Source: Chondrosia reniformis
Taxonomy: Eukaryota > Porifera > Demospongiae > Chondrillida > Chondrillidae
NCBI GenBank assembly: GCA_947172415.1
Contig: OX359190.1
Coordinates: 4,278,001 to 4,342,000, forward strand
Direction of reading: 5' to 3'
Length of the DNA: 64,000 bases
In this document: in pieces, positions 30,031 through 60,097 of the stretch
Layout of the letters: every line of letters starts with the position of its first letter
How positions within the stretch are numbered: the first letter of the stretch is position 1
Notes under the pieces: generated by a model
What the model was told of the DNA's origin: nothing
Database searches by the model: none
What the model saw: only the letters and a program-made list of their open reading frames with translations
Translations under genes and position numbers: made by a program

Positions 30031-30099
30031 GGCAATGGTCTCATTCTCCCCTGCCCGAAAAGTGCTGACGTGTTCGCAATACAATGGTATAGGAAGGAT

Positions 30100-33000
30100 T
30101 GCATAATGCTGCTGTGATGATTTTTTTGTCATGAAAGGTAGTAATCTATGATGTAATCGCTTCCCGTAGCTTCGATACTTCGTGGCACGGAAATAATGAC
30201 GTCTCAAAGGTGGTTTTATGTGGTAGGTGCTATAAGTGCACGTGTTTGTCGAGATGTAAGTATTCAAAGGATTTATTGTAACAGTGACAGTAAGTTATTA
30301 TATTACGTAAAGGTAAATTTGGCATTTATACTAAGCAATCAGTAATTTGACGTTCGTATGTTGAAAGCTATCAAATTTCTACGAGAACTTTCTTTACTCA
30401 ATCTAGGGTCTCTATGTTGTCGAAAGTTTCGTATATGCGATTAAAGTATTGTATTAAAGGAATGGTTGGCAAATCCTCTCAATGTATAGTTGTATATGGC
30501 TGCGTTAAAATGTATAAAATACAGACTGATTATTTATTGGTTACTCTGGTATTTTTAAGGATTGGTTAATATACAAGTTTGTCCTTTTAAATAAGTAAAT
30601 GTTTTTTTGATAGGTTATGAATGTACTATGTAGTGACATTTTAACAGAATAAGGTAAAGCCATGCATAAGTAAAACACTGTAATTGTTGACACTTTATAC
30701 TAAAATGTATATCACCGGATGAAGAAATAATAAACCACCTATGTTCAGTTATAAAATTGTTATATACTTAGTGCTTGTTTCTAAAGTAGGCTGTAAAACT
30801 TTGATAAAATTTTAGGGTTATCCAATTTTTGGTTAAAATAACGAATGCTGATTCAATATTTCTTATATGGGAATAGAGTTTTTATGCTTCTAATGATATT
30901 AGGCCCTGAACATTATGTATGTTTACAACATTATAATTGTATATTTGTGTTATACGCTGTTAGAGTAGTACAGCATTTTCTCATTTCACATCAATATGAG
31001 AAACCAATGAAATTCTTAATTTGTTTTACTTAGGGAAATCCCCTAGAGCTTTGAATGAGGATACAGATTTCTTCCCTTTCGACTGGACCTACTGCACCTA
31101 ACAGGTAATCTGGGAACTCCTCTCTCCAGTAATGACAATTTAGTACCTCTATGTACCTCTGTAAGTTTGTATGTTAATGTTTCCAAATTTGAAAAAAAAG
31201 AAATGATGAATTTTAGAATTCAGAATTTGGTGTATTTAAGTTTAATCACTTTTTGAAAATTGTAGAGCATTGAAACTTATGTTGGCATTTAGGAAAATAT
31301 GGAAAAATGACTGGAAACATTTTAATGCAACTAAAAATGCTATTGTTATAAATTTATGTTGTTTATTAAAAATACATTTAATAGTACAGCTAAGTTTATT
31401 GAGCATATGTATATGGTGAGTAGTACTGTACTCTGTGATAAATGATGTTTATAAATTGTTTGTTATGCACTTGTAATGTGTAATATGTGGAAATTGCATC
31501 ATCATTTACAGTATTATAGTTCATTACAGGTAAATTATAATTAAAATGAGATTATGAGTATAAATATAATTTTCTAATTCAGTGTTGGCATTTATTAATA
31601 GATTACAGTATATATATTTTTGAAGTTTATGATCTGGTGTTTAGAGGTAAATACTCTTCATATTTCAATTGGAGTGTCCATCTTTATGTTTGTATTACCT
31701 GTAAAAATTTTACAGTTAAAAGATCATTTAATTGCTAATATTCATATTCATATGGTACATATATGTGGTACTCTTGAAATGAACCTTTCATATAAAGATC
31801 AAAGTTCATGTCCAGAGATTTTGTTTAGTTGTGTGTTTTGTATGAAAAAGTTGTAATGTAGTTTAAGAAATTTTGTAATTAGATACATGGTATAGAATGC
31901 TTTTGAATAATTTGAAAGTATTTTTCAAATTGTTAAATTACATGATCATGTGTTGTATTAATGAAGTGGAGTATAAAGGAAAATAAACAATGTTTGAACA
32001 AAATTATTAGGTTGATTAAAAAGGTATGTTCTCAAACAATTATATTGGTTTATGTAATATTTCATGTTTCAAAAAGTGTGAACTAAGTTTCATAACAATT
32101 ACAGCATATGGTACAAGACAGGAAAAAGTTAATTGCATTGATGGTATACATGCGTATTATGTATGTGCCTGCATGTCTTCCTACGATTTATCTATGGGTG
32201 TAGAATCAATTCACTACTCCTCTCTTATGTTTATTGCTACGGGCATACTCATTATAAAGTAGTATTAATTGACAAAATTGAAATATTGAAAGAGATGTTA
32301 ATGTATACTTGTCCTAAGTGTAGAATCTAGGATGATTTGCTAAATAGTTAATGTATACAATGCTTATTCAATCTACAGTAAGTGGTTATATTATGTATGT
32401 ATGTGTCTATTGGTTATCTACAGATGTAGATAAAAATGAATATTTTTTGTTATGTATTATATTACTGGTTAATCTATGGATATAATATGTCAACTTTCTT
32501 CTAAGTTTTACCACAAGCATTTAGGAAATAAAGTATTTTGTTAAATTCAATCTTGAATGGAAAGATCTAGAAATATAACAGTAGGTATGCAGGAGTTCAC
32601 AAATATAACTGGGACCTAAGGTATTATGTATTTAAGTGCTACTATACACTGTTTTATTGTACCTTTTTTGCCACAAAGTGTAAGATACATTGAATGTTGA
32701 TAGGTGATGAAAATTTTTCCTTTTCTTGGGAAATAAACAATATTGTTAGGTCCATCAACAAGATATATTTTCTTCAGAGGATATAATGTTGTTAGCTTGT
32801 CGGTTGTAAGATCGTCTAGTGACCAGATGGTTGAAGGATGTTTACTGCCAGCAAGGTATACAATAAAATACCTTTCCATATTTTTAACTTCTTTAGTTGA
32901 CTCTATTTGGAATAGTATAATTGAAAATAGGTAACTTTTAATCTAAAAGTAAAAGTTTTTGTTGACTTTTGTAAATATAAGGATCCTTAACTTGTTGTCA

Positions 33001-33990
33001 GCTGAACTTGACCCATGTTCAGGTTACAGAAGAGGTCACTGTCAGCTGAGTAATAGTTTACTGATAAATGTTTGACACCTGACTATTATGGCTGGGTGGC
33101 TGATAAGATTTTGATGCTTAATGGTGTATATTTACAGTGCAAATGATGTGTATTGCACTACCATTATATGTTAATCTGCACTATACAGTATCTGAATAAT
33201 TTCAATTTGTAAGAGTCAGACTTTTTAATGGAAGTGCTTAGTTGATGTATTTTTTGAATGTAATTCTTTTATGTTTATGTAGTTACTCTTTTAATAGACT
33301 TATTTTCAGAAGTGTGTTTATGATTGCATACTTTGTGGTTTAGATGTGAATATGTTGATTTATATAGATTTAAGGGAAGAAGTGAGAGTATCTATTAACG
33401 TAGGATCCTACAAATAAATGTCTACTTAAATGTATTGAGGTGTAAAATGGCTGCTTTGCAGTCAATATGTAATATGGTACATAAATCTATGGCAAATCAT
33501 GTTTCTTAGAATCTATCTACTGTGATGGAATGGATCATGTTGTTTTTGATGGAGGGTAAGAATATCTTTCAAATTATGAGATCTTTGGACTTGCGAGGAT
33601 GGTGGAAAACTAACTGTAGGCTGCATTGTCAGCATTTTTGTTGATGACAGAACTAGATAATTTGAAAGTTGCTGTGTACCATATAATTAGTTTTCATTAT
33701 AGATATCATATGTAATGAAGGTGATATGTTTGCATTCTAATTTATGAAAAGGTAATTAATTGAGAACTTTTCTGAATAACTATGGCTCCAATTTGTGGGA
33801 CACCCATTTTTATTGTAAAATAATTTTAAATTAGTAGGTACAAATTGAAAATTATTTTGTAATGAACACAAATTTTTAAGAAAAAAATGATTTGACAAAT
33901 AAATGAAACAGCTAGATACTAAACTAAGTCTGTAAAGAATGTTAAAGATGTAACAGAAAAGTTTCAGTTTGTGGATGGTATTTTTGATTA
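30100..33990. other. left interior of the element, almost no coding signal
   Basis: Very AT-rich; several stretches are T/G-rich on the plus strand. The only exon-like piece is 31034-31102 on plus, preceded by TTACTTAG and ending CAG|GTAATCT, reading 'KSPRALNEDTDFFPFDW' and stopping just before the donor. Its partner exons are unknown. ORFs at 30845-32934 look like chance frames. Confidence 0.4.
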
Positions 33991-34005
33991 CCAGTTTAAC
34001 AACTT

Positions 34006-34435
34006 TTAGACTAATGTGCCATGTAATGATTCTTCTTCAATATCTTCGTATGTATCTGGAGTGTTTTTAACTAATAATTCTTCAATTTTTCTTAGTTCTT
34101 TTTTGAGAGAATTGTGCATGTTATCCATTTGCATTTTCAAGGAAACAATTTCTTTTTGTATGATTTCTCCAATTAATTGTATTTTTTGATGACTTGTCTC
34201 TTTGTTTGATGTAATCTTCTGATTGGCTTGAAGGCGTTTTCTATATGTCCTTGTATGTTGCTTTTGTTGTAGGTTTCTTCTTTTTTCTTTTAAAGCAAGT
34301 ATATGGTCTGAATAGCTTGGTAGTATTTTACTTAGTTGATTGAATTGTGTACCTGGTATAGCTAATAGAGCAGCTTCTGGAAGATAGGTAACTAAACTCT
34401 TACTTTTCGCATCATTTACTTTTGGAACAATGATG
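34006..34435 (-). CDS. terminal exon of a basic/coiled-coil protein
   Basis: An open minus-strand exon of ~143 codons without an initiator, entered at AACCAG|CATCATTG and closed by TAA at 34006-34008. It starts 'IIVPKVNDAKSKSLVTYLPE', has a short conserved-looking segment 'LLAIPGTQFNQLSKILPSYS', a basic helix 'EKRRNLQQKQHTRTYRKRLQ', a probable coiled coil 'QLIGEIIQKEIVSLKMQMDN', and ends in an acidic tail 'DTYEDIEEESLHGT'. The layout is reminiscent of a basic-zipper or DNA-binding coiled-coil protein, but I recognise no family. The upstream exon was not found. Its length and lack of stops in an AT-rich region make it real coding sequence. Confidence 0.55.
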
Positions 34436-36182: not shown

Positions 36183-36590
36183 TTAAGTTGTACTGTGTGG
36201 TTCTTCATTATGTTCTGTCAAATCGATGATGCAGTTTTCTTCTTCATTTTCGACGTCGTCTTCGTCGTCACTTATAATATTGATGTAGCTGTCTTCGTCT
36301 TCGTCTTCGTATTGGTATTCGTCTTCTTGGTCGCTAAGGAATCGAATGAAGTCTTCTTCTTGGTCATTGGAGGCTGGAACATTTCTTTGGTAAGGAATAT
36401 AGTCTGATACAGGATCAAACGGCAGCGACTGAGTTTGCGTTGAAGCGTCATAGTAGTAAATCTATATTTTCAAAACATGTAGTTAGTATCTTTAGACAGC
36501 ATTGCAAGTAAAACGTATATAGTTTGATGAAAAACTTACTATTTTTGCTACAATTTCACATTTAGAAGGTAGTTTGTTGTTTCCAGCCAT
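36183..36590 (-). CDS. small acidic two-exon protein, 109 aa
   Basis: Exon 1 is 36590-36540 (ATG, 'MAGNNKLPSKCEIVAKI', donor ATA|GTAAGT). Exon 2 is 36461-36183 (acceptor ATATAG|ATTTAC), reading 'IYYYDASTQTQSLPFDPVSD', 'FIRFLSDQEDEYQYEDEDED', 'SYINIISDDEDDVENEEENC' and stopping at TAA. Both exon lengths are multiples of three (51 and 279). The protein is strongly acidic, with no domain known to me. The start 'MAG' in similar context is shared with the RPA-like gene. Acidic tails of this kind often contact DNA-binding proteins or nucleosomes; that role is inference only. Confidence 0.6.
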
Positions 36591-37800: not shown

Positions 37801-37819
37801 GAACGTCATCCCTCTAATA

Positions 37820-38550: not shown

Positions 38551-38739
38551 CAGCTCTTCTGAGTCAGATTGAAATGTTCTGTTTCTTCTGACTATTAAGT
38601 GAGTGTAATTATAATGCGAATTTAACTGAAATTTAGCAACATTTAAATTACAGTTTGGGTGAAAATCATTGTAGAGAACATATGCTTAAAGTGACAATGA
38701 GGACTGTCAATGGGTGTACAACCTGAATATTATATATAT

Positions 38740-39930
38740 CTTAGTTTAGGTAGCAGTGACCTTTTTGTGGTATCTGTTGGCCTAGAGTACCTCTTTCAAG
38801 TGCTCTTTTACCTCACACTGGAGGACACTGGATCCAGCACCACAGATCTTTTCCACTCATTCCCTGAGGCAAAGGGCAATGCCATCTTACACCCTAGGAT
38901 GGTGATGAGACGAGAAGTGAAGGTATCTATCCATGTGGGTTGGTTTTCTGTACACGGATGTACTCAAACTTCCTTTGTTCTTCTTCACTAGCATGTCAAG
39001 AAATGGGATAGAGCTGTCTGTCTCCTCTTCCATGGTGAACTGGATGTTCTTGTGTCTTCCATTAAGGAAAGACAGAAAATCCTCCAGCTGATCCCTACTC
39101 TGGCTCCAGATGACGAAGGTGTTGTCTACATAATGTAGCCAGAGCCTGAGTTTAGAACCAGCCTTTAGGAGGTTTCTTACATGAAGATGTTTGCCACCAC
39201 TGGAGAGAGAGGAGAGGCCATAACTGCCCCATCCTTTTACTCAAAGAATGCGTTACCATACTGGAAGTATGTTATCCTAAGATAGAGTTCTGTAAGTGTC
39301 GTGATGGTGGGAGGGTCCAAAGTGGTCTGGTCTGATAGGATGTTGTCTTCCCTCAGCCTCCTATTAATGATCTGTAAGGAAAGATCTATAGGTACCTTGG
39401 TAAGTAGGCTCTTCACATCAACACTGATTAACTTATCTTTGTTCTCTACTTGTAATCGTGTGATTTTCTTCACAAAGTCCTCCGAGTTGCTCACAAAGTG
39501 AGGAGTGTTCCCCCACAAGGGTGACAGGATATTCACCAGATATCTGGATAGGTGGTAGGTAGGGGAGTTTATAGAGGAAACAATAGGTCTCAAGGGGCAA
39601 CTGGCCTTATGGATCTTTGGGAGTGCATATAACTGGGGGGTGGAGTTTTGTTGGTTCTGAACCGTCTTCCTCAGATCATTGGGGAATTTGCCAATTTTCT
39701 CCAGAGACTGTAGAACAGCAGTTACTTTCCATTCTATTTTCAATATTTGGTTCTTTTTTATTAGTTGATAGCTAGTATCATCCAAAAGTTCCCATACTTT
39801 GCAGTCGTACTCTTCTTTGTCCAGGAGGACTGTAGCATTTCCCCTATCTTCTGGAAGAATGATGGTATCAGAGTCTGACTTGAGCTCCTTGATGGCTGCT
39901 GTCTGACTAAGTCAGACAACTATTGTAACA
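38740..39930 (-). mobile_element. Penelope-like RT fragment inserted in the giant element
   Basis: The minus strand encodes a Penelope-type reverse transcriptase: 'PQLYALPKIHKASCPLRPIV', 'SSINSPTYHLSRYLVNILSP', 'DKLISVDVKSLLTKVPIDLS', then in further frames 'GAVMASPLSPVVANIF' and a thumb-side block 'LEDFLSFLNGRHKNIQFTME'. No GIY-YIG domain follows, and the copy is broken in more than one place. It is a nested insertion, unrelated in sequence part to the nuclease tails at 19.4-20.5 kb, which lack an RT. Confidence 0.85.
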
Positions 39931-40019
39931 CTTCACTTATACGTCAATACACTGTTTTTTTTACAAATAGCAGTATTCAAGAAGCTTAATGAAGCTTTTC
40001 TGTTGCTATTCATAATCTT

Positions 40020-40244: not shown

Positions 40245-43200
40245 CTATAGATGTTTAAATTGTGATTGAAAAGATAATCTGTTAAGAGCTCTTGTTATTT
40301 CTTTTTCAGATCGTTCAAAGCAGGGTATGTTGATGGCAATGTTCTTGCGAAAGACTATGCATATGTTAAAAACTCTGGTTATGTCTGGTACATTGCTATT
40401 GAAACTGTTGTACTCATTTAGTCCAAATGCTTCGTTTGTTATTGTACTAAGCAGGAAGTATTCTGTTTGGCTTAAATCCCCTGTAATCACAGTCTGTTTT
40501 TTCTCATGAAGAAATTGTTTTGAAGTTAATGATGTTGTTTTATGCTTAGTAGAATTATTATATGCTGAATATAGTCTTCGCTTTTTTGGTGGGCATTCTT
40601 GTTGTGGTTCAGATGAAGTATTTTGGCAGTTAGTGCATTGACAGAATATGGAACAGGGTGTTTTCTTTTTTTGGCAAGGACATCTGGACTTGTATGCTGA
40701 ATTTCCTGAGCAGCAGATCTGTTGTTTTTTATGGCCTCTACCACATTGACAAGTTGATTGGCTTTCAGGTTGATTACATTGGGAAACTGTTGTTTCTGGA
40801 TTTGTTACAAACTCTTGAGTTCCTGTTTGTGTTGATAAGCTACTGGTTTGTATGATTTGGTTATCCTTAGAAACAGAGAGTAGATTGTTTTGCTTTATAA
40901 GGGTCTTATTTGCAGTTTGTAAGCATTTTCTGAAAAGTTTGTTTTTTTTGTTGCAAAATGCCAAAAAAGTAGATCTTCAGCAAATGTTGAAAAGTTGTTG
41001 GGAAGGTAACTGCAAAACGTTTCAGTTGGTCTGGGTGTATTAAGAAGTACTACTATGTGGATGCCAAACATGTTTGCAATACACTGTAAGAGAATGTCGT
41101 AATACTCTGGATTATTCCATTTGTGGTTGTTTAAACTGTTGGCTATTTCAACTTGAGTGTTAAAGCTTGCATCAGTTTCCATGCAGTTTCCTAGTAATGT
41201 TGCTTGCAATACTTCTTTCAGAGCTAATGTCAAGTTTTCAGGTGATTCTGGAATCTTCTTGGTGTAGGTCTTGAATGTATCTGAATTCAAGATAGAAGGT
41301 AAAATATTTGTAAACAAAGTGTCTGCAATTATTGGCAAAAGTGTATCCTCTTTGTCAGCCAAATCCAAGTTCCATGCTTGTTTTATCTTGTCTGGATTGA
41401 AGGTTTCTTCATGATTGTCTTCCAAAAGATACATTGGATTTAACAATTTCTTGAAAGGCAACTTCAAATAATCTACGAGTATCTTTTTTGTTTGCTTTTC
41501 CAATAAATCTTTGTGATGTTGAAGTATTAGTGCCTTAATTGACATCTCAAAAACAGTGTCTGAATTTTCAGTAATTTCATTAAAAGACCCTACTTCATCT
41601 CTAATGCTATTAGCCTCATTTTCAGATAATTCGTTGTCTTCTAGAAATGACGATTCTGAAATTGGAAATTCATCTGGATTGTCAAGTTGTGTATCTCTTT
41701 CTAGTTCTGTTGGATATGTAGCAATTGTCTATTAAATGATTTAGAAGTAATTTTATAAAGTCTTTACTATAAATAATATCATAGCTTACTTGTAAAATAG
41801 TCCATGCATCTGTTTGATCAATTGTCTTTAGTTGATTGGAAGTCTGACATTGATCATTAGTGCTTCTTGTATTTGTTGAAATTAGACCAAATTCTTCTGC
41901 TTCAGTATTTAACTATAGTATAGAAGATTATTAAAGTATTTTAATATCTATTAGATGTCTCATTTATTGCTCACATTTGTGTTGGTTACTAAGCAATCTT
42001 CTGCATTCAGCATTCCCAGAATCTGTTTTTGACTCATATCATGGTTGTGTTTGTGTAACTTGCTGCTAATTCTTGCAAATGAATATTGTATACCATACTT
42101 TGATCTTGGAGATGACAATGTGTTCATAATTCTATGTAACTGTTCGTTTCGATTTGTTCCTTGTCCTGGTTTTAGCCCTATGTACATACACAGAATATTA
42201 AGGTGGCAGGTGATGAATCATTTTCTAACTCTCAACTTATAATAAATATCATAATAAACACGATGAATGTAATTAATTTGTCATATTCATATTGCTGAGT
42301 TGTAATTGAGTAATATTTTGCAATATGAAGTTTGTTCTACCTGTGTGCCATTGTAATTGTATGTGAGAATGTGGCTATGTAGCATTTACCACTAAATTTC
42401 TAAATCTAATCAAGTTACTATATGAAAATGTCTAAACTGTAAAGGTGAGACATTTCAGATACTGAATGCTTTTCTTGTATGGTAGATAACACAGAAAACT
42501 TAGATTTTTGTACAGACACTCTGTGTTGGTCTTTTGCAGTTAGCCTCTCAGTAATACGTGGGTGCTGTGCAGCAATGTATGGACTATTCACACAGATGTA
42601 TAATGGTGGAAGAACTTGGGTGTTGGCTACTGAATCAGTCACAGTGATGAGGCAGGTAGTAACTTATACTTATATTGAATGCAAAGCTAACATTAACCAT
42701 CCCTGGCCAAGTGCCTCTTGTTGTGAAATGTGTTTTGTTTGTTTGTTCAGTTAGGATTATGGCCTACAAGTATGTAAACGTCGAATTCACTTGCAAGCAC
42801 GTACACAAGTACTACATTCCATCACTTTCCATGTGGATTTGTATGGAATATGTGTAAGCTACTGTGTGGTTGTTTGTGAATGTCTGCAATAGATATACAC
42901 GGAATTCTACGAATCTGAGTAAGTTTTCTGCATCATGTACTGTATTTGTTTATATTGGTAAAAGACTAACCTGATAAGCATCCAAGTTTTATGTGTTTCC
43001 TTAGTTTCTGTATTTCTCTCAGTGCTGATTGTAAAAGTATTTTGCCTCCATGTTTACTCTCTTGATCTGTCCATTTAACTAAAAAGTCATCTAATTGTTT
43101 TTCCATCACAGCTGTATTTACGAAATGGAATACAAATTATGTATATATAATAATACTTTTTAAGTCATGATGTCATCATTCTAATAGTCTTACCACTAGA

Positions 43201-44781
43201 AGGAGTGTTCTGTGTTCTTTCTGTGCCTGAATCTGTGACATCATGGAAAACTAGACGGAAATCGTGGCAGCACTTTTGCCGTAAGGGATGCCTTTTTGGT
43301 ATTTTTACTATAACTCTTTGAATAGCATGAAACAGATCAAGTAGAACTTTTATGTCTTCTCCAAAGATTTGTTGTATTTTTTTACGCCAATGGCAGCAAT
43401 TATCAATGACAAACTCTCTAAGCTCCTGGTTATTTTTGTTTAGCTGTTCTTTGATATTTTCCAAAATATCTTTGCAATTTTCAAATGCTGCTGATTTTGT
43501 TAACTTCCAGGACATTACTTGGCCACTCGCATTTAAGACACAGAATATGGCATTAAACTGCTGTGTCCACTTTTGATCACCTTTTCTCATATAGTCTATA
43601 TTTGCTAACATAAAAGAATAAGTACTAACCAGGGATACAAGAAATTAGGAATAAAATACTTTATGTATTTTTAAAATATCCTTTAACACAAAGCTTTAGG
43701 CTATTATTATATATTTTTAATGCTAGATATCATTGTAAGTTCAATTTTTGTATAGCATACAAAATGATATATTCTTTTACATGGTTCAACTTTGCAAGTT
43801 AATTTGGGGGAGCATAAGAGATATACGTAGCTGGTCCAAAAGCTCCAGCTTTTAAATTACTTATTAGTTTTCTTTTAGAAAAGGTAAAATACAAGCAAAA
43901 TATTTGAACCAACCATATCTTTGAATTTTAACTGTAAGATGTCAGTAAAATCCTAATCTAAACAATGGTTAGCCCTTGGAATGATAACATATTGCAACAA
44001 GGTTACCTGCAATCCTGAAAGTATGGTCGCATGTTATCCATGGTTTTTCCTGGTTCAGCTTAATTGTAGACATGCATCTTTTGTAGGATAGCTCTCTAGT
44101 AGAAAATGTATGGATGTAAGCAGAGGCAAGTACATTATAAGCTGTTGATAGTTGATGTTTCCCAAACAGATTGGTCCATTGATCATATGAAATATTGCAT
44201 TTTGTTGAATTGGCCAATTGAAAAAGTGATATTCTTTTCAGATAAAAGTGTCGCTTATTTTTTTGAAAGATTTCAAGTATGCTTCTTAAGCTGAAGGAGC
44301 TTTCTACAAGGTGATACACCTATTGAGAGAGTGCTGTGGTGAAACCACTTCTGTGGGAAAGGTTGAAGGGTATGAATGCATTTGCAATGTTACTATTATG
44401 ACTGGATACAATATGTCCAAACTTGCATTTATACTGTCTGGTCACTAGAAGTACAGTGTTATTGATTCCGTGAATGGTTCTTAAGTGTTTTTTGTGACTT
44501 TTCCCACCTAGATTCCATTCAAGCTGAATTAGTTCACTATGTTTTTCTTCTTTCAAGCATTCTGGGCAATAAGCTTTCTCAGTAATAAATTGTTTCAAAC
44601 TTGTTAAGGGGTCCCAAATTATTACAGGTGGTATCAAATATGCTATAGGATCCTCTATTTCTTTTTGTTCTCTTGGTAGTATTTCAATTTCATGAATAAA
44701 AGTCTGAGGTGTTTCAAGGAACTTTGAAATCATTGTTTGCCATACCTCTGGTATTTCAAGGCCTCCCTGATGTACTGACAT
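40245..44781 (-). CDS. DDE transposase with DUF6729-like, OTU-like and CXC regions
   Basis: Exons: 44781-44007, 43604-43194, 43111-42971, 42177-41975, 41912-41790, 41728-40245; phases agree. Order of parts: DUF6729-like zinc region ('PPVIIWDPLTS', 'YCPECLKEEKH', 'RQYKCKFGHIVSSHNS'); first catalytic Asp 'KPWITCDHTFRIAG' (~252); second Asp 'FVIDNCCHWRKKIQQIFGED' (~326) with 'DLFHAIQRV'; Glu in 'GQGTNRNEQLHRIMN' (~454); a weak OTU-like region ('FGIHIVVLLNTPRP'); a tesmin-type CXC domain ('SRCPCQKKKTPCSIFCQC'). The set resembles the KDZ-related transposases with CXC domains. This copy has an in-frame TAG at 44320-44322 and a one-base frame change in an A8 run near 40945, so it is probably inactive. 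It should cut and join the element's TIRs. Confidence 0.85.
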
Positions 44782-46286: not shown

Positions 46287-49200
46287 TTATAGTGTGTTGG
46301 CAGTTGTAGGGAGAAACTCTTTCAAGGTTTCATAACTAGATGAACTTTGTATCACTCTTTCAACTTGGCATCCTGTAGCAATTTGCTTTGGTGTTTCTTC
46401 TGCAAATGCTGCTTTATACCTCTCCCAAGTTGCTTTTTTTGTTGAAAGTATAAATAAAATTAATTCTTTCTTTTCTTCTATTGGGTGAGGTTTATAATAT
46501 ACTATTTGATTTTTTGGTAATGTTATTACACATCCCAGGGATTCATCTTGTAATTGCTTAAAGGCTTCCATATGTGTTTCTGAAACAAATTCTAATTGGT
46601 TTCTGGGACAGATTCTTTGTATTCCTCTTGCAGTAACAAAAGGTCCTTTAATCATAAGAATAAAGTACTTTAGATCAAGTAGTTTCCACAGTTCATATCC
46701 TTGAGAGCTGTTCCAATCTCTGTCTAATTCAATTTTTGCCTATGCCAATTATAAATTGAAATGAATTTATTGTGTATTACATAAACTGTTTAAAGAACAA
46801 TGTGTAACTGTGGTTCTTAGCTTTTTTACCTGGGTAAATATATGCTGCTGAACTGCACTGTACTTTATGAGCTTAATTGCTGTATTCATTGCTTCCTTTG
46901 TTACGATTTTCATACTGGTCACATCAACTTCAATTTTTGCATCTGGATCTGTTTGTGCAAGTAATGCATCAGTGATATATTTCAGCACTTGAAGGATTGG
47001 TGCTAATCTATTAATTACAAAGAAAATGAAATTATTGAAGATAACCATTTTGTAGCAGTTATGTGTAGATGATTTTGTATTAGTGATTAAAGGAAGAAAG
47101 TTGGTATTTCTAAAAAATATGAAAGTACCATTGTATTAGAGCTTTTATGTTAATGTTTCAATATATACAATAGATAAACTATCACACTTTGTATTTAGTG
47201 TATGCACCATAAATCTGCAGCTAAGAGCTTCAGTTGAAATACAGCTGGATTTTATTTAACAGAGATGCCATTTAGCTATGATTTTTTGTGATTTATATGT
47301 ATCAGTTTTTAATCAATTATGTATACAAATTGTATAGGTCATTAGCTAATTTCCTGTGGTGTTTTCTTTTAGTAGCTAAGAGTTTTAGTATGTTTTGTAC
47401 CTCCTATAGGTATTTTTGTCTTAATTTAATTGCTAAACCAAAGTTGGCAGAATCATTTGATACACAGGTGCCATATGACTGATCTGCGTGTTTTTACGTT
47501 TTTTTATAAACACTTTTAAAAGCAAGTTTCGTTCTAACAGAAACGATTTGCTAACTTAAACTGGTATACATCGAAGCGCTTATTTAAATGTCAGCGAAAT
47601 CAAAAATTTGAGCGAGATTGAACAACCAATATCGAAGATATAACGTGTTAAAAAGGGCTGATTTTAAAACTCTCAGACACTATGCGCTTAGTCTAGGAAT
47701 AAGCTAGAACTACGTTCTATACTTTATTGGAAAGGTTACAATGTATTCTAACAAAATTAAGAAGTCCGTTTCGATTCGCCCATCCGTTGAGAAGAAAACT
47801 GTGAAAATACACTTTTAATAGATTAGTAAATGCTATTTAATCTTTCATATCTTGGGAAATAAAGCTCAGACGCAAACGGACTTCTTAATTCTTACTAAAT
47901 GACACTCACTGAATCCATTGAAGCTGACTATGCGACTATGAGGATCTTCTAACTTAAGCGCATAGGCAATTTTCTTTCACTTCTGCAACAGATGCCATTT
48001 CTTAACATTTAAATCATATTCATTAGCAAATAAGTTTATTCATGGGATGATTTACACATTTGAAACGCAAACGGTGAAATTTTATAGCCGGATGTTAATA
48101 TTGCACAAATCCTAAGTTGTGTAACTGGTATATATACATGTATGTATGTATGTTGACGCAAGTGATCGAGGATCGCCGTAAGGTTTTATTCACACTAAGG
48201 ATTGCCAATTTTCGAATTTTCGTCTACAACAGAGAAGATTATGCCCCCCAAAAAGGCAAGAGGGATATCAGTCGATAATCAGATTGCTCTGAAGTTCAAC
48301 TGCGGCTTTGCAAGAGTTGCTGCATACGAATTATTCGTTAACAAAAGGTACGTAAAAAGTAAGTATTCGACGATAGCTAGAGAAGTGAATCATTTTATAG
48401 CTTTACATTAATTGTATAATACAATACGTACGAAGTGAGACGATTATATAAAACATTAATAGGATACGAAGTGAGACGATTATAAGACAATGATACGAAG
48501 CGAGATGATTATATACGATATGTAAATCAATTAAGCCAAAGGATGCTATAACAATGGACGATTTTAAATTCCTTCCGGTGTGTAACCGATAACACTAAAT
48601 GACGCATTCACTCTTAACGATTGAAAACGAAAATTCTTTATTAATTATCGCTTGTTACGTGTTGATCGCTATAAGGCAGCCTATCCCTAAGGAACAGTCA
48701 TAAGGTACCAGTGTATTTTTGGACAATGTATGAATATTAATAAAACTATACTCACCTTAATACGAGTCTTGTACATTTGCTGCTTGTATCATATAAACCA
48801 TCAGCTACTTCCCAATTAGAGATGTAGCTTTTTGTGCATTCATCATGAAATAATTCATACTCCAATAATGCATCCTTTGATAATGTGTATAGGTGGTTTC
48901 CTGTGCAATCATGGATGTCATTGACTATTTGTAAAATTTCTTTGCAGTCTTTAATTTTTTTATCTTTTAGATTTGCCCTCTTCTCTTTCAAAGTATTACT
49001 AAGAAATTTGCTAATCTTTGGACAACACATCATAAAGCGGTCTAGTAGTCCATCCTCTTCTTGCATTATACTTGGCAATGCCTTCATAAAAAGTGGTCCT
49101 GGCTGAATAAATCCGATGATTACACAATGAGTTGCAGCTATTTCTTCTTGATGAAGTTTGTTACCTTGACCTATGGTTACAGATGCAATTTATGTATGCA

Positions 49201-49966
49201 TGTTATGCAACTTGTATTTTTGATACTATGTACGTACAGTACATGCCATAATAAAAGTAATTGTTAACTATTAACAGTTAACAACTAACAGTTAACTGTT
49301 AACTGTTACCACTTATCAGTTAATGGGTAAAAGTTAAAGTGTAGTTAACATTACCTTTATAATGACGCATACCATAGATAAAAAAGATAAATATTTTATA
49401 ATGACATGATTCTATACTTTTTTACCTGTAGATCTTAACCATGATGGAGCATCAAATAGTTTACAAAGCAATCTTCTGTCAGTCTGGCTACCTTTTTCCA
49501 TGGCTTCAAATAATGAGGTAATTTCATCACTAGCAATTAATGCTCGCCCATACTTCTTGGTCATAACTTTTCTGAGGCCTTCTCTAGTGAAATCCTCTAG
49601 GATGATATGTTCAGACCAGCTACTAACTAAAGCCTCTATTGGCTCTGTCACTGCTAGATGTAGAGCTGTTGACTTTCCTGACATGGGTGGCCCAATACAA
49701 AGTATGTAAATGTTGAGTGGTACTTCATATCCTTCAAACGGTGTAATTTTTGAATGGGTACCCATTGCTACAGATATAGATGCAAGTAATCTTGTTAATA
49801 TGAATTCTGGTGGAATATTGGATGCATCAGCAATAGTAGACATAGTCTCCTTCACTGTGCTGCCTAAGTATTGCTCCCAAGGGAACAATTCTTCACCTGC
49901 TGAAATTACTGCTTCTTTAATTGCACTTGTTGGGTATTCAACTAATGTTTTTCTTTTTTTTGACAT
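46287..49966 (-). CDS. DUF3987-type P-loop ATPase, four exons, intact
   Basis: Exons 49966-49426, 49170-48756, 47007-46830, 46739-46287; lengths 541+415+178+453 give 528 residues with all junctions in phase and no lesion. Walker A 'GPPMSGKST' at residues 92-100; Walker B 'ALIASDE' at 142-148. Later blocks fit DUF3987: 'THCVIIGFIQPG', 'EEDGLLDRFMMCCPK', 'RLAPILQVLKYITDALL', 'AIKLIKYSAVQQHIFTQ'. DUF3987 proteins in phages and mobile elements are helicase-like ATPases that often accompany primases. The C-terminal exon ('GPFVTARGIQRICPRNQ') is of unknown role. Intron 2 is long (1.75 kb) because it holds a TA-flanked insertion. Confidence 0.85.
47463..48713. mobile_element. TA-flanked TIR element nested in an ATPase intron
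   Basis: Ends CACAGGTGCCATATGACTG (47463) and, reversed, CACTGGTACCTTATGACTG (from 48713) match at 18 of 22 bases and sit between TA dinucleotides (47461-47462 and 48714-48715). The length is 1251 bp. The interior has more CpG than its surroundings, an inner inverted pair (AATTAAGAAGTCCGTTT at about 47755; inverse at about 47876) and short tandem units TACGAAGTGAGACGATTATA (48430-48520). No transposase was seen. It is probably a non-autonomous Tc1/mariner-type element. Confidence 0.8.
48241..48350 (+). CDS. exon-like ORF inside the TA element
   Basis: ATG at 48241 begins 'MPPKKARGISVDNQIALKFN', continues 'CGFARVAAYELFVNKR' and meets a donor-like AAAAG|GTACGT. No downstream exon was found in the element. 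It may be a captured first exon of a host gene or a relic of a transposase N terminus. The Lys-rich start resembles DNA-binding proteins but is not diagnostic. Confidence 0.3.
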
Positions 49967-50625: not shown

Positions 50626-51693
50626 TCAGTAGTCTTGATTGTCTGGGCTAGTGTTAATTTGAAACACATCTTGTATGACTTCACTCTTTGCACTTAAGAT
50701 GGCATTAAATGGGTCACTATTCAAGATATCCTCTCTGCTTATTTCTTCTTTTTTTTGCTGTACTATCTTGGCCAAAGTTTCAGTGAATGCTGTTACATTC
50801 TTTGGTACTTTCTCTTTGTCTGTTTTAAGGAGAAGTCTTGTTGATTGTGCTTTTTTACAAAAATAAATCTTTTGCTGGGTAAGACACTTTCAACAAATGG
50901 CCATGTCTTCTTTGAATGGATCAACCTTTCCTTTGCATGAAACACACATTCTATAGTCCTTTAAATCTAGAACAGCAATAACAAACGCATTTTCTAATAA
51001 AACTGTAGATGGTGAAGCTTCAGGGGTGATTATATTTTCTAGATCAGGAATTTCTGTAAAATTTGAGAGATGTTTTTCCATGTTTATAACTCGTTTTCCC
51101 TTGAATTCAATAATGTTTGTATTTGTAAAAAGATAAGATTTACTTTGGATAAGTGTGTTGACATTTTCTTCCCAAATACTCATCTCACAATGACCAGTTT
51201 CATCTGCAACAATAACTTCTTGCTTTTGTTTCTTCAACTGATTTATAGTAAATGTAGGAGAAAGTGATATCACTTTTGCTTTAAAGTTAATTGATGTATA
51301 TAATGTCGTTTCTTCCAATTGGTTTATCTTGAAATTGATTATTGGAGTATCTTCAGCTTTTGAATTTTCATTTTTCATCTTTTTTGGAGAAGGAAGAATT
51401 GTTGTTGTTTCTTTAAGGATAATTTCTGGCCTGGAACTTCTCTTTCCTATTTGAATTTTACAGTGATCAAGTGTTGCCGTTGACTTCTTGTCGTGATATG
51501 TTTGAATGGCCTCATGTTGCTTCTTATTCCATCCAACAAACCTTAGGATATCACTACTTTCAGTCTGTATTGTACCATAAAAATAGTCTTTGCCTTTGCT
51601 TTTAGTCATCGGAGAAACTGCTTGTATGACTCCATCTATAGTTGTATCTGCTGCTAAACTAACTTGGGAATCTATGGTTTGTTTGCCAGCCAT
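50626..51693 (-). pseudogene. RPA-like ssDNA-binding protein (two OB folds and zinc ribbon)
   Basis: A single 356-codon reading frame from ATG 51693 ('MAGKQTIDSQVSLAADTTID') to TGA 50626, with one internal TGA at 50890-50892. OB fold 1: 'KDYFYGTIQTESSDILRFVG'. OB fold 2: 'FKAKVISLSPTFTINQ', 'VADETGHCEMSIWEENVNTL', 'SYLFTNTNIIEFKGKRVINM', typical of RPA70-like folds. Then a Cys pair 'MCVSCKGKVDPF' and a second pair 'IC-stop-KC': the internal TGA lies exactly inside the second C-x2-C. After it the frame continues sensibly ('KCLTQQKIYFCKKAQSTRLL'). The TGA is most simply a CGA-to-TGA change. Expected role: coat single strands for the primase and helicase. Confidence 0.75.
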
Positions 51694-53003: not shown

Positions 53004-56000
53004 ATGGCAGCCTGCTTAGAACTAGTTTTAGAATCTCAAGACAATTACAAAGAGCTAATGGACTACTACAGTTGCATATTTCCATGGAAAGTAGTTGCTA
53101 GCTGGCTTGAAAATTCCACAGGTATTTTCATATTAATGTATTTATGCTAACGTTTTTGGTGGGAATGTGTCTTTAAAATAGCACTATTTTTAAATGCACA
53201 GATGAAAAAGCTTTTAAGAATAGAGAATTTGCATTTCAAATGAATGATGGATCCTTTTGGAGATACCTATCTTTTCATTCTTATACTGATTTGAAGCAGA
53301 CTGTTCTCAAGAAATGTCCCAGAAGTATCAATGTTGGTGGCTATTATTCAACTAAAGTAAATTTGAGAATTCTTTTTCTATAATATGTAGTATATCAAGA
53401 CATATAGATTATATATACATAGTTCCAGTCCCTAAACTTGCTGTTTCATAATATTTTGCAGCCTAAACTTCATAATCAGAATTCACTGAATTATACTTTT
53501 GTTGGGAAAGAGTTGGTGTTTGATATAGATGCTGATTCTTATGATGAAGTCAGGACTTGCTGTCAAGGGAAGAGAATTTGTCAGAAATGTTGGATATTTT
53601 TTTCGGTAGGAATAAAAGTCATTGATAAATTGCTAAAAGGTTTGTTATATACATATAAAAATGAACAACATGCAGTTCATTATGTACTCACCATATTTAT
53701 ATATTATATACTCACCATATTTACATATTATATATAATTTGCTACATTACCAATTTCTTCATCCATATATACTGGAGTTAGCAGATTGATCAAATGTGTA
53801 TATATAGCATTCCTATGACCATTTTACTGGGCAACCATTTGTCAACATCTATGTATACATTTTACATGTATACATAGATGTTGACTGTAAAAAGAAAGTT
53901 CAAACAACTTCAACTTGTTAGCCTATGTAAGTCAATTCTAAAAGGTATTTAAGTTATCTCTTCAATTTATTTATATATGAAGATGATTATATATATGAAT
54001 GTGAAAAACACTGTAAATATATATATAATCAAAGTGAGAAAGTAATCAAGGATGCCAGATTTGGCAGTAACTTAATTACAAAAATCTTCCTACTATATTT
54101 AAATAAATTTGTTCCTATTAAAGTATATTTGGCAGTTTGGCAAATTATAAATGGGGCATGGAGTTTCTTGGGTTATACTGTATTTTGTAATGATTGCAAA
54201 TATATAGAAGACTTTGGATTCAGCAAGATACTGTGGGTCTATAGTGGATGTAGGGGTGTTCATTGCTGGGTCAGTGATAACAGAATTATTTGTGCTGATG
54301 CTGAAACAAGAAGTGCTATCCTTAGCTATTTAACAGTAATTAAAGTAAGTAAGGAAATATCTCATTCAAAACCTGATTATTTGCCTAACTTTTAAGAATT
54401 ACAATTTATTTTATGTGACATTAAAAGATAGAAAGAAAAAATGTTTGTATATATATTATATATATGTATATATCTGTCAAAAAATGGCAGATGTTCGGCT
54501 AGCTTTCGTTTTCTAGCTTAAAATTAGCTTTCTCTTCCTTAGCGTAGAACATTGAACGAATGAAATAGACTTAAAAACCACCCTTACTAATACTATGTAA
54601 CGTAAAGCTTGCGCAAAAACGTTTTCTACGAGATATGGCCTTGAAAAATTGACGGCCAACAAGAGTCGATCAGAAATCGGTTAACCTGCTACCTATGAGA
54701 ACCAGACAAGTAGTTCGAGTTTACTTAGGGGTGCCTTGCGCCCCACGATTTTTTAAATTCGAAATACTTGTTGTACTTTATTCTCATTTTACTTATTTGT
54801 ACTAGAAATAGTCATAGATAATCTCCTTTCTATCCTCACTTGTTATAGACATATGTAGTACAAGATAATGTAAAGCTTATGCAAAAAAAAAAAAAAATCT
54901 TTATATAGCCTTGGCTGCCTTGCAAGCGCATGATAATGCTTTGTATGTACATGTTCAGGTATATGTATATATATAATCCTGTGCTATTTTTACAGTATAT
55001 AAATAGGTTATGTGTATATTAATACTATATGAACTCAATCAGTATATATCAGTGCAACTTTTAAATTTGTTTAATATTACTTCCATGTACATATATCTGT
55101 ATCTCACCATTCATGCACATTTTAAAATTACATGTATTATATATGTTTAGACTTCATGCAAAGACATACTAGCAATTGTTACACAGGATGATGGTTCTTT
55201 ACACTGGTCTTTGAGGTATGGAATGTTGTCTATGGATAATAGTGAAAGTAAAGGCAAATGAAAAAATGAGTTGTTCATTGAGTGCATATACGTACACATA
55301 TGCATATACGTATGCAGTTTAGTCTTATATTGGATAATTTTATAATAGTCAAACCTGCTTGCATCCAAATCCTTCACACCAAATAATTACAGTAACATTA
55401 CCTTTCTAATTAGTGCAAAGCAAATAATCTGTAGCTCTGTGATCTATCAAACATAAGCATTCATTTTGTTTTCAATACTGTAAACTATGATTTGGTCTAA
55501 TAAAAACTTTAAAATATGCTCTTACATTCTATACCCTGTCAATAGATAAAAGGGTGCATGTTAAAGATGCTCAGTCAATAGTTTCATGCTGTTTATACAT
55601 TAGAATGTTCTAACAGAGCACTCTTTCAGTCCCCTTAAAGATTTATATTAATATTCTTTCTTTCAATTGTATACGTACATAGGAAAGCAGTAGCAATAAT
55701 AAAAGAGCATTTTCATGAAGTCTTGAAGTGTCATGATTTACTGGATGATAAAAGACATTTAGTAATTGATTTGTTGCCTGATATGTTGAAACATAAAGCA
55801 AAGGATATATTTCAGAAGAATTTAAGTTCCATAGATAAATGGAAAAATTTTACCAATTATGTAAGTATATAGTATATAATTTATATGTATAATAATTGCC
55901 TAACCCTATGGAGAATCCTGAGGGCTTCTATATAGTAGACATATTACATTAATTTGAAGGTATATTAAGTGTTTTAAACAGACCAAAGTTAAATCGAATT

Positions 56001-56675
56001 CTTAGAGTTAATTTCTATTTAAGCAAATTTGGAATATAAAATGAAATTTTATGCAACTTTTAACAATGTCATAGGATATGAACCATTTTGTAACTCATTG
56101 TCAAGGTCACTGTATAACCTTTGTGTACAATTTACAAAGTGTTTTTATAATCTTATATATGCATGTGAATGCATGCAATAACAATGATCTAGTCTGATAG
56201 AATATATATTTTCAACCTTTGTTTGCAGACAAAGTGAAACCTTAGTTTAAGTAATAGTACTAGTAATTTAAAACCCTTAAAATAGAACAAGTTGTTATTT
56301 TATTAATTGTTGTATTAATTTAAAGGGTTACTATTACTTAAACTAAGGTCTCAGTTTTCTCTGCAAACTAAGGTACCTATCTGAGTTTACTGAATTGAAT
56401 CTTGTTTATATTAATGATCACAGTTTCATAAACCCTGTGTGAAAACATTCCATCCAGTAATAGAAGAAAAATTACTGTTAGCTCTTTGCTATCCAAGGTT
56501 GGATAATGCCGTAAGAGCTGATCCCAAACATCTATTGAGACTTCCATTTTCAGCTCATCCTCTAACATTACAATTAGCAGTTCCCATTCAAAATCTGCAA
56601 ACATTTGACTTCTCAAAAGTACCTACAATTCAGTTAGTACAGTTCACTAACATGACATATACATATGAGTCATAG
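53004..56675 (+). CDS. PRIM1-like: eukaryotic-type DNA primase small subunit (PriS/PRIM1-like)
   Basis: Seven exons: 53004-53121, 53202-53356, 53462-53639, 54208-54344, 55151-55215, 55683-55860, 56424-56675; every boundary is GT-AG and in phase, giving 360 residues and no lesion. It follows human PRIM1 closely: 'REFAFQMNDGSFWRYLSFHS', 'INVGGYYSTK', catalytic pair 'ELVFDIDADSYDEV', zinc Cys 'RTCCQGKRICQKCW', 'LWVYSGCRGVHCWV', third Asp 'CYPRLDNAV', and 'LRLPFSAHP', 'FDFSKVPTIQL'. Both DxD Asp and the distal Asp are kept. PRIM1 has SGRRGVH at the nucleotide site; here it is SGCRGVH. The C terminus is ~60 residues shorter than human. It makes RNA primers; no large subunit is encoded nearby. It lies well inside the TIRs. 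Confidence 0.9.
54443..54775 (+). repeat. ~330-bp MITE copy B (in primase intron 4)
   Basis: Second copy of the 52213-52545 repeat, same orientation: CTGTCAAAAAATGGCAGATG to AAATTCGAAATACTTG. It sits in the intron between exons 4 and 5 of the primase gene and so was tolerated. Confidence 0.85.
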
Positions 56676-56679
56676 TTGT

Positions 56680-58130
56680 ATCTCACAATTCATGATACTT
56701 ATATTTATATATATGTATATAAATGCCTGAATTTTAGGATAAATATATCAAACAGTACATGTTTATGTTCTACTAATTACATATGTATACAGTGCATGAA
56801 ACTATAGGTTATATGACACCAGATGTATCTGGAAACCTTACTCAATGTTGAGTAATAAGAGAATGTCACTCACCATTCTTAATAAATATTATAATACGCA
56901 TGGAAATTAAGTTTACATTCGAAGATCATAGTACACAAATTTCAAGTAGTTTTGAAACTTCAATAGGTAGACTGAACTTTGATTAAAGTTTCTCAAAGAT
57001 TCAAAAGTTGTTAATAATAGTTCAACTTTGATCAAAGAATCCTCGTATTTCTTCTCATAGAGAACTTTAAATGTGAACTAAATTTCTGTGTGTACTGTAT
57101 ATACAATCATGGCAATTACAGATGGATTGATCAATTCTTATATTTAATAAATTAGAATCCTTTAGCAAATCAACTAAAAATGGAGTGATGTATCATCATC
57201 TCCTATACACGCACTAATTAATATAAACCAGATAAATATCTTGCTTCAATATGTACGTGCTATAATAAATACAACTTTTATATACTAATCTGCATGCAAG
57301 TTTTGATCAAATCATTGTGTATCTAAACTATATAGCTATTCTTTGAGCAATTGCCTGCAATCATTCAATGATTAATTTTGATAGATATGCATTGAAACTT
57401 CATGTGGGTATTTCTTATTGTTTTTAAGACATCTATGTTATGTGTTCAAAAAAGTATCATTTTCCTTTCATGTGCAAATAGTTCAGTATCAAAGCAACTC
57501 AACACAATGTCAGAGGCTGAAAGTAGAGTAGTGTTTATTACAAGTATGAATAGTTAGAATGCACAACAGTTACAAGGACAGTAAGCATTTTCTTATGAAT
57601 TTGCTTTTATTGCTTAATAACTGGTGTAACACTTCATACACATATCCCTAGTATATACAAACTATTAACACTGACTAGATATAAAAACAACTATTATACA
57701 TTCCTATACAATATATATATTCTCTTTATGTATAATGAATGCACTGTTCATTTAATTAATATTGTTCCATCATCATATTATTTATATAGGAATTCAGAAA
57801 GATGTTCTTGGACCATATTTAAAAGAAAGTGGCTCTCTACTTTGAACATTACATTCAAATTATATTTCATTAGAAACAGTGTTCAATGCTTACATTTTGT
57901 ATTTATAAATATATAATAGTGATTTTTGTAATTTTTACATTATCAGCTCTTTAATTTAGAAATAATATCAAATGTTAATATGTTGTAATATTAATTATTA
58001 ATTTAATTTAATTTGAGATAACCGACTTCATTTTTAATTTAAATTATATGTAGCAATTGTATTTATGAATATCTATTGCATTCAAAATTACTTAATGATT
58101 TAAAATTCTACATGTACTGTATCAGTAGAC
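56680..58130. other. no gene seen
   Basis: AT-rich 3' flank of the primase gene within the giant element. Short ORFs only. Confidence 0.4.
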
Positions 58131-59715
58131 ATCTTTAAATGCTAGAAAGTCTGACCTGTCGTTCTGGCACAGCGACGGGTAAAGAGAATACAAACAATTG
58201 CATCACAACAGCTAACAAATAATATTACAATTTCATTCAATATACAATAATGGCTATAGGATTACATCACAACATAACTGTGGCCATCTTTAAATGCTGG
58301 ATAACCTGACCTGTCGTTCTGGCGCAGCGACGGGTAAAGAGAATACAAACTATTGCATCACAACAGCTAACAAATAATATTACAATTTCATTCAATATAC
58401 AATGATGGCTATAGGGATTGCATCACAACATGACTGTAGACATCTTTAAATGCTGGATAACCTGACCTGTCGTTCTGGCGCAGCGACGGGTAAAGAGAAT
58501 ACAAACTATTTCATCACAACAGCTAACAAATAATATTACAATTTCATTCAATATACAATAATGGCTAGGGATTGCATCACAACATGACTGTAGCCATCTT
58601 TAAATGCTGGATAACCTGACCTGTCGTTCTGGCGCAGCGACGGGTAAAGAGAATACAAACTATTGCATCACAACAGCTAACAAATAATATTACAATTTCA
58701 TTCAATATACAATAATGGCTATAGGGATTGCATCACAACATGACTGTAGCCATCTTTAAATGCTGGATAACCTGACCTGTTGTTCTGGTGCAGCGACGGG
58801 TAAAGAGAATACAAACTATTTCATCACAACAGCTAACAAATAATATTACAATTTCATTCAATATACAATAATGGCCATAGGGATTGCATCACAACATGAC
58901 TGTAGCCATCTTTAAATGCTGGATAACCTGACCTGTCGTTCTGGCGCAGCGACGGGTAAAGAGAATACAAACTATTGCATCACAACAGCTAACAAATAAT
59001 ATTACAATTTCATTCAATATACAATAATGGCTATAGGATTGCATCACAACATGACTGTAGCCATTTTTAAATGCTGGATAACCTGACCTGTCGTTCTGGC
59101 GCAGCGACGGGTAAAGAGAATACAAACTATTGCATCACAACAGCTAACAAATAATATTACAATTTCATTCAATATACAATAATGGCCATAGGGATTGCAT
59201 CACAACATGACTGTAGCCATCTTTAAATGCTGGATAACCTGACCTGTCGTTCTGGCGCAGCGACGGGTAAAGAGAATACAAACTATTGCATCACAACAGC
59301 TAACAATTAATATTACAATTTCATTCAATATACAATGATGGCTATAGGGATTGCATTACAACATGACTGTAGCCATCTTTAAATGCTGGATAACCTGACC
59401 TGTCGTTCTGGCGCAGCGACGGGTAAAGAGAATACAAACTATTGCATCACAACAGCTAACAATTAATATTACAATTTCATTCAATATACAATGATGGCTA
59501 TAGGGATTGCATTACAACATGACTGTAGCCATCTTTAAATGCTGGATAACCTGACTTGTCGTTCTGGCGCAGCGACGGGTAAAGAGAATACAAACTATTG
59601 CATCACAACAGCTAACAATTAATATTACAATTTCATTCAATATACAATAATGGCTATACGGATTGCATCACAACATGACTGTAGACATCTTTAAATGCTG
59701 GATAACCTGACTTAA
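58130..59715. repeat. ~155-bp tandem array with a hairpin in every unit
   Basis: Ten units (GACCTGTCG starts at 58153, 58308, 58464, 58618 and so on, spacing 154-157). Each unit has an inverted pair CCTGTCG / CGACGGG around an 11-base loop containing TCTGGCGC, the only G/C-rich piece in an otherwise AT-rich unit. The array ends ~380 bp inside the right TIR. No match to the flanking satellite. Confidence 0.95.
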
Positions 59716-59719
59716 TGTT

Positions 59720-60060
59720 TACAAACAGTTCCCTATATTTCCTAGCTAAATAGAGTCCTAATTTAGAAGTTCCAATTTACTCTTACAACTGTTTAGCTAT
59801 ACACAGCTTCATTTATGTATACAGATGATTACATTTTAATCCAACAACATGGGGGGCTAAACCCTCCATACCCTCCAGCAAATAATACGGTTCAACATTA
59901 TATATATTTAACTTTGATATTCTTTTCAGATGGACTTACATTTTGGCATCATGATGCTTTAATCACAGTTCAGGAAGTAATTATGAATAACATCCTACTT
60001 CAGGAAATTAATTAAACTAAATGTCATAAAGCATCATGATGATGCCTTAAGTGATTGTGC
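59720..60060. other. subterminal region of the giant element, no gene seen
   Basis: The 66-codon ORF at 59815 has no features. An inverted pair AAAGCATCATGATG near 60030 (and GGCATCATGATGC at 59945) is visible and could be part of a subterminal structure. Confidence 0.4.
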
Positions 60061-60097
60061 AACTCATTTTGGGGCAGGGGAGAATGAGACAACTACC

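What the first reader, a model, noticed from the sequence alone, without database searches (positions are those of the whole stretch)
30031..60097. A 30-kb TIR transposon inserted in one satellite unit, carrying its own replication genes
Boundaries are defined three ways: a 26-bp imperfect TIR with a 19-bp exact core, a 7-8 bp target duplication, and restoration of a ~151-bp satellite unit when the element is removed. Inside are a DDE transposase, a DUF3987 ATPase, an RPA-like protein and a primase small subunit. I know of no described eukaryotic transposon family with this exact set that lacks a capsid and polymerase.
Basis: partly seen in the sequence, partly recalled or inferred. Interest (0 to 1): 0.92.

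Follow-up and report, generated by a model that had tools for sequence, protein, structure and literature searches.

The report
Sponge transposon carrying replication genes
A 30-kilobase jumping gene in a sponge chromosome carries, besides the enzyme that moves it, a predicted DNA-unwinding enzyme, a single-strand DNA-binding protein and a captured copy of the animal DNA primase gene, which suggests that it may help to copy its own DNA.

Summary
The insertion is real. In Chondrosia reniformis chromosome 2, a 31-nt imperfect TIR (30031-30061/60067-60097) is flanked by an 8-bp TSD (7/8 match), and removing the element restores a 151-bp satellite unit. The termini recur: 7 of 12 non-MITE copies with both ends, window included, have 8-bp TSDs with at most one mismatch (control 0 of 132).

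It encodes a DDE transposase (IS256/Mutator-like fold in a homologue, plus OTU and CXC), a DUF3987 ATPase, an RPA-like OB protein and a PRIM1-type primase sharing host PRIM1 intron positions. No other copy with all four was found. A decayed relative keeps OB-DUF3987-transposase in order; a separate 8.7-kb family (two near-identical copies, perfect TSDs) pairs an intact transposase with DUF3987 alone. dN/dS between copies is below 1 for all four genes of the window lineage, so they look like working parts.

This copy has in-frame stops in transposase and OB genes and a nested retroelement, so it is probably not autonomous now. Likely mechanism: DDE transposition plus element-assisted replication (inferred). 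Ten paper searches showed no such gene set; Repbase was unavailable. New variant of a known kind.

The parts
29382..30030 (+). 151-bp satellite array (4.3 copies), left target flank
60099..60834 (+). same satellite array, right target flank
30023..30030 (+). target-site duplication, left (TAAGTATA)
60098..60105 (+). target-site duplication, right (CAAGTATA)
30031..30061 (+). left terminal inverted repeat
60067..60097 (-). right terminal inverted repeat
58125..59711 (.). subterminal 156-bp tandem repeat (10.2 copies), also present beside the right-type end in the 11 other non-MITE pairs fetched
40248..44781 (-). DDE transposase gene: exons 44781-44007, 43604-43194, 43111-42971, 42177-41975, 41912-41790, 41728-~40898, and the CXC-bearing ORF 40976-40248 (last junction unresolved); in-frame TAG at 44322-44320
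   Evidence: relatives
46287..49966 (-). DUF3987 ATPase (predicted helicase), 528 aa uninterrupted over 4 exons (49966-49426, 49170-48756, 47007-46830, 46739-46287), Walker A GPPMSGKST
50629..51693 (-). RPA/SSB-like OB-fold protein with C-terminal zinc-ribbon-like cysteines (by eye); in-frame TGA at 50892-50890
53004..56632 (+). PRIM1-type primase small subunit; open exons 53004-53121, 53202-53356, 53462-53639, 54208-54344, 55683-55860, 56424-56632 (one small internal exon and the 3' end not placed)
38890..39911 (-). nested Penelope-like reverse transcriptase fragment (identified by eye, motif recalled; no Pfam match)

Best explanation
A Mutator/IS256-like DNA transposon of a lineage that travels with a DUF3987 ATPase. 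The window copy belongs to a branch (F1) that also gained an RPA-like ssDNA-binding protein and a captured intron-containing PRIM1 gene. Shown by sequence: TIR ends, 8-bp duplication on insertion, a transposase with an invariant D/D/E set in its homologues, recurrent linkage to DUF3987, constraint on all four genes. Inferred: the transposase excises and inserts the element, while DUF3987 unwinds DNA as a helicase, the OB protein covers the single strand, and PriS, working with host PriL and Pol alpha, primes synthesis. The element is thus copied during or after excision instead of relying only on host gap repair. Internally deleted copies with the same ends are probably moved in trans.
Against: F2 looks recently active yet shows no OB or PriS, so these are not needed for movement. 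No polymerase or PriL match in the element. The C6 PriS copy lacks exon 3 with the DID residues and has a frame break, and copies with truncated or stopped PriS exons have spread. 4 of 10 DUF3987 loci have no transposase found within 10 kb. No activity of any kind is shown; the DUF3987 model was too poor to use (pLDDT 44.8).
Confidence: 0.5

Rival explanations
1. DUF3987 is not a replicative helicase here but an ATPase partner of the transposase, like MuB, TnsC or IstB: it activates the transposase or picks targets. OB and PriS are side acquisitions.
For: DUF3987 + transposase is the minimal recurrent pair, divergently transcribed in the 8.7-kb F2 elements, where no OB or PriS was seen; the pair recurs in families 34-45% alike in protein.
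Against: DUF3987 in prokaryotic elements is fused to primases in place of known helicases (PMC5862659, passages); in F1 it is co-oriented with an ssDNA-binding protein and beside a primase, both with dN/dS below 1. The bacterial analogy is recalled, not tested.
Confidence: 0.25
2. PriS and OB are passengers: host or other mobile genes carried by chance in a transposon lineage prone to gene capture, with no part in its life cycle.
For: Mutator-like elements tend to acquire host gene fragments (PMC6446971, start of abstract); PriS keeps host PRIM1 intron positions; OB-like ORFs exist at 15 other loci of the genome; of 14 non-host loci of the best-kept PriS exon only the window and C6:6.057 Mb align over its full length without a stop, and the C6 copy lacks exon 3; PriS dN/dS against four short copies is 0.46-0.56 over 55-76 codons.
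Against: PriS 0.29 (242 codons) and OB 0.43 (78 codons) with bootstrap limits below 1; catalytic residues kept in the window PriS; OB stays in the same gene order in the C2:4.76 Mb relative.
Confidence: 0.2
3. A remnant of an integrated DNA virus or plasmid-like element mobilised by a transposase, as in Teratorn.
For: A set of replication-like genes inside TIRs; one sub-threshold capsid-scaffold match (PF14265, 0.015).
Against: No capsid, polymerase or packaging match over a curated cut-off among 37 of 37 ORFs of >=80 aa; two viral-contig scans with transposase homologues found no relative; PriS is of eukaryotic type with introns placed as in the host gene.
Confidence: 0.04
4. Chance nesting: two solo ends of different copies and unrelated genes fell together, with no single 30-kb element.
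For: Nested repeats occur inside; 5 of 12 end pairs have no matching TSD, so mixed ends may occur in this family.
Against: The window pair has a 7/8 TSD and restores the 151-bp unit; the two ends are the left and right types of one family; conserved gene order in a relative.
Confidence: 0.02

Closest known systems
Mutator-like element group MuDR-6_HM (Cnidaria), listed with an 'Ovarian Tumour Gene' motif in Table 1 of PMC6446971 (passages seen)
   Same: OTU domain in a Mutator-type element of an early-branching animal; MULE TSDs are 8-11 bp
   Different: The table lists one ORF and no helicase, primase or ssDNA-binding gene; the sequence itself was not available for comparison
ISCth4 / IS256 family transposase
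   Different: About 11% identity; bacterial; OTU, CXC and partner genes absent (single-gene organisation recalled)
Prokaryotic mobile elements with archaeo-eukaryotic primase plus DUF3987 (PrimQH, All3500 families; PMC5862659, passages seen)
   Same: DUF3987 together with a primase, predicted helicase
   Different: Different primase families in one fused protein; here separate genes, a eukaryotic PRIM1 with introns and a DDE transposase
Helitrons with RPA and Helentrons with OTU (PMC6431247, passage seen)
   Same: Eukaryotic transposons that carry RPA or an OTU protease
   Different: Rolling-circle Rep/helicase protein, not a DDE transposase with TIRs and TSDs
Polintons/Mavericks and Teratorn (PMC6431247, passages seen)
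   Same: Large elements with replication genes
   Different: They carry viral polymerase and structural genes; none found here over cut-off

Membership tests
Mutator-like elements (MULE/IS256 clan) | 8-11 bp TSD | tested here: met
   8 bp, <=1 mismatch in 7 of 12 non-MITE F1 pairs; control 0 of 132; F2 GTTTTTCC and GAATTTTC perfect in 2 of 2
Mutator-like elements (MULE/IS256 clan) | IS256/Mutator-type DDE fold | tested here: met
Mutator-like elements (MULE/IS256 clan) | Significant Pfam MULE or Transposase_mut match | tested here: inconclusive
   1 of 26 homologues each, E 0.039 and 0.04
Mutator-like elements (MULE/IS256 clan) | Place inside the MULE tree | not tested
   No MULE reference sequences at hand
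KDZ (Kyakuja-Dileera-Zisupton) | KDZ transposase domain | tested here: inconclusive
   Not among matches of the F2 transposase at E <= 0.1 nor among the 25 families shown for 26 homologues (a capped list)
Polinton/Maverick | Protein-primed PolB, capsid proteins, packaging ATPase | tested here: not met
   None over cut-off in Pfam scans of 37 of 37 ORFs >=80 aa; shorter exons not scanned
Helitron | Rep/Hel protein, no TIR or TSD | tested here: not met
   TIR and TSD present; no Helitron domain in the element's 37 ORFs; a separate Helitron lies at 21568-26454
Teratorn-like | piggyBac transposase plus herpesvirus genes | tested here: not met
   No such match over cut-off in 37 of 37 ORFs >=80 aa

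The most novel reading that the evidence does not exclude
A eukaryotic TIR transposon that carries a primosome-like set (helicase, ssDNA-binding protein, primase) and replicates its own excised or strand-transferred DNA, so that it multiplies by element-driven replication without a polymerase, capsid or rolling-circle enzyme: a mode of DNA transposition that I have not found described for eukaryotes.
Probability: 0.3. Interest if true: 0.9.

Novelty: new variant of a known kind. Interest (0 to 1): 0.72.

Why it matters
Eukaryotic cut-and-paste transposons are thought to depend on host replication and repair to gain copies (general knowledge). A lineage that keeps a predicted helicase, and in one branch adds a primase and an ssDNA-binding protein with signs of purifying selection, makes it testable whether some DDE transposons copy themselves. 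It would join plasmid-like replication with DDE transposition without a virus, and it shows a PRIM1 gene taken over as a transposon component.

Tried and rejected
Virus or provirus origin: disfavoured on gene content and on two viral-contig scans without relatives. KDZ/CXC transposase: not supported; fold points to IS256. TIR core in eight stretches (four other transposase loci, two DUF3987/OB stretches, two at the C5 primase gene): best 3 of 15 mismatches, in L069 and L062, not convincing. DUF3987 fold: AlphaFold model pLDDT 44.8, not searched. DUF3987 homologue in the PDB by sequence: none. Rfam: none in the window. DUF3987 homologues: only 8 proteins in two searches, the first scoring a capped candidate list. 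Donor of PriS: about equally distant from host and human PRIM1 by eye, so the donor is open. PriS dN/dS against host PRIM1 and the C5:3.726 Mb gene is not usable in 4 of 5 comparisons (dS saturated; the fifth, L064, has dS 2.6). Not seen: the carriers of the other OB ORFs and the surroundings of four DUF3987 loci (C2:6.807, C3:4.790, C4:2.698 [under cut-off], C5:4.246 Mb). VIA-align rows other than IS256 and OTU were not interpreted; families not listed there are not excluded.

Papers: 10 searches used. DUF3987+transposon+primase gave one phage paper (listing only); DUF6729+transposase and DUF3987+transposable element gave none. Passages only were seen of PMC6431247, PMC12181767, PMC12062965, PMC5862659 and PMC6446971; a term search in PMC12730594 gave no passage. 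The statement that no such set is in print rests on these searches; Repbase, preprints and subscription papers were not searched.
Full report
Where it is. The genome has 117,379,552 bases in 15 contigs and the window is contig 2, 4,278,001-4,342,000.

The element. TIRs of 31 nt, 87% complementary, end at 30031 and 60097. The flanks are 8 bp, TAAGTATA and CAAGTATA. Cutting the element out with one TSD copy gives a satellite unit that matches a neighbour 88/91 without a gap. From that call's anchors (29992 and 60218) the repeat spacing across the empty site works out at exactly 151.

The family (F1). The TIR core occurs 51 times at up to three mismatches, against 7 for the reversed pattern. There are two end types, left and right, each with its own subterminal sequence. 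I fetched 14 other pairs of ends, 3 of them MITEs of about 260 bp; most unpaired ends were not followed. With the window, 7 of 12 non-MITE pairs have TSDs with <=1 mismatch (L031, L032, L033, L037, L038, L039, window); L034, L035/36, L040, L041, L042 do not (4-7 mismatches), nor do the 3 MITEs (2-4); the cross-pair control is 0 of 132, or 0 of 210 with the MITEs. L035/36 has two right-type ends. None of the 14 pairs gives a tblastn match to window ORFs in the transposase or DUF3987 genes. L040 is an internal-deletion relative, 97.6% identical to the first 3 kb.

Genes. On the minus strand: OB protein, DUF3987 ATPase, transposase, in that order from the right. DUF3987 is an uninterrupted 528-aa reading over four GT-AG exons. 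The transposase has an in-frame TAG at 44322-44320 and the OB gene an in-frame TGA at 50892-50890, so this copy is probably not autonomous. On the plus strand is a PRIM1-type primase with six recognised open exons. Its exon ends agree in aligned position and phase with the host PRIM1 gene on contig 5 at the ends of exons 1 to 4, both ends of the next one placed, and the last end seen (by eye). This points to capture of an intron-bearing gene. The best PDB matches are eukaryotic DNA primase small subunits (E 2e-63). Pfam scans of all 37 ORFs of >=80 aa found no capsid or polymerase over a curated cut-off; one sub-threshold capsid-scaffold match (PF14265, 0.015) lies in the end of the OB gene. 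Shorter exons were not scanned.

Primase in other copies. The best-kept PriS exon occurs at 14 loci besides host PRIM1, window included. 11 of 14 have a TIR match within 10 kb, two of these (C9, C3:1.885 Mb) resting on three-mismatch matches; 3 do not (C5:3.726, C1:4.624, C3:4.979 Mb). Only the window and C6:6.057 Mb align over the whole exon without a stop; 6 of 14 have an in-frame stop. Between the window and the C6:6.05 Mb copy, dN/dS is 0.29 over 242 codons in 5 of 6 exons (bootstrap 0.19-0.44). That C6 copy lacks exon 3, which holds the DID residues, and has a frame break, so it is probably dead now and the constraint is older. Against four short copies the value is 0.46-0.56 over 55-76 codons.

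Relatives with the core genes. At C2:4.758-4.763 Mb a decayed relative keeps OB (55-82%), DUF3987 exons 3-4 (56-69%) and transposase (66-72% in its two best stretches) in the same order and strand; DUF3987 exons 1-2 were not found, and no PriS was found there. Against it, dN/dS is 0.18 for transposase (3 of 4 exons tried aligned), 0.27 for DUF3987 and 0.43 for OB, the last on 78 codons only. A second family, F2, has two copies at C2:1.951-1.960 and C2:3.090-3.099 Mb, 99.5-99.9% identical over most of the coding part and 97.1% over the right end, about 8.7 kb, with about 850-bp TIRs and perfect 8-bp TSDs GTTTTTCC and GAATTTTC. F2 copy A encodes an intact 1038-aa transposase and DUF3987. No OB or PriS match lies in either copy. 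A third copy lies at C2:7.28 Mb (94% to copy A over 1.2 kb of the transposase region), where dN/dS is 0.37 for DUF3987 (501 codons) but 0.64 with limits 0.28-1.72 for transposase, not distinguishable from 1. A fourth, older pair is at C1:5.009/5.017 Mb.

Linkage. Ten transposase loci were found with both exon queries (two further matches at E 5e-4 and 1e-3, C8:0.816 and C10:0.345 Mb, left out). DUF3987 is within 10 kb at 6 of 10. Of 10 DUF3987 loci (one, C4:2.698 Mb, under the cut-off) 6 have the transposase within 10 kb; 4 do not. The chance per locus is 0.0017. Three of the six are copies of F2, so the independent cases are fewer: F1 with its relic, F2, and C1.

Mechanism. Shown: a TIR element of DDE type inserting with 8-bp duplication, recurrent DUF3987 linkage, and dN/dS below 1 for all four F1 genes, each against one other copy. 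Inferred: DUF3987 as helicase (predicted for mobile-element replication in PMC5862659, passages), OB as ssDNA cover, PriS as primer maker with host PriL, together copying the element during or after excision. Against: F2 looks recently mobile without OB or PriS, so those two are add-ons; no polymerase or PriL was found; nothing is tested at the bench. The main rival is a MuB/TnsC-like role of DUF3987.

Novelty. The Mutator-like OTU transposase has a probable known kin, and captured genes are usual in that group. A conserved helicase-like partner, with primase and ssDNA-binding protein in one branch, was not found in the ten paper searches listed. I therefore file it as a new variant of a known kind.

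Noticed in passing
window 21568-26454 (-): A Helitron: Helitron_like_N (4e-26), PIF1 helicase (1e-21) and a neighbouring OTU ORF (1e-11).
   Followed up: partly
window 13940-16227 (+): hAT-like transposon: C17orf113-type zinc finger (just under cut-off) and hAT dimerisation region.
   Followed up: no
window 19585-20055 (-) and 19918-20328 (+): Penelope-like GIY-YIG endonuclease fragment (0.0019, under cut-off) present as a close inverted pair.
   Followed up: no
L068/L069, C5:3.726-3.728 Mb: A second primase-small-subunit gene, 55% like the transposon PriS in one exon, six exon matches without stops, no clear F1 end nearby; either an older transposon relic or a domesticated copy.
   Followed up: partly
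L078, L079 and other loci: A multi-copy family of RPA-like OB ORFs (16 loci with the window; L078 364 aa and L079 311 aa open) whose carriers were not identified.
   Followed up: partly
G000:C10:345120-345452: A 711-aa open frame weakly like the transposase catalytic exon (E 1e-3); possible domesticated transposase.
   Followed up: no
window 58125-59711: 156-bp tandem repeats beside the right end, with varying extent among copies; could be transposase- or helicase-binding sites.
   Followed up: no
L032/L033, C1:9.2389-9.2526 Mb: Two F1 copies as an inverted pair about 5 kb apart that align to the window with the same stretches and identities, as if one were a duplicate of the other.
   Followed up: no
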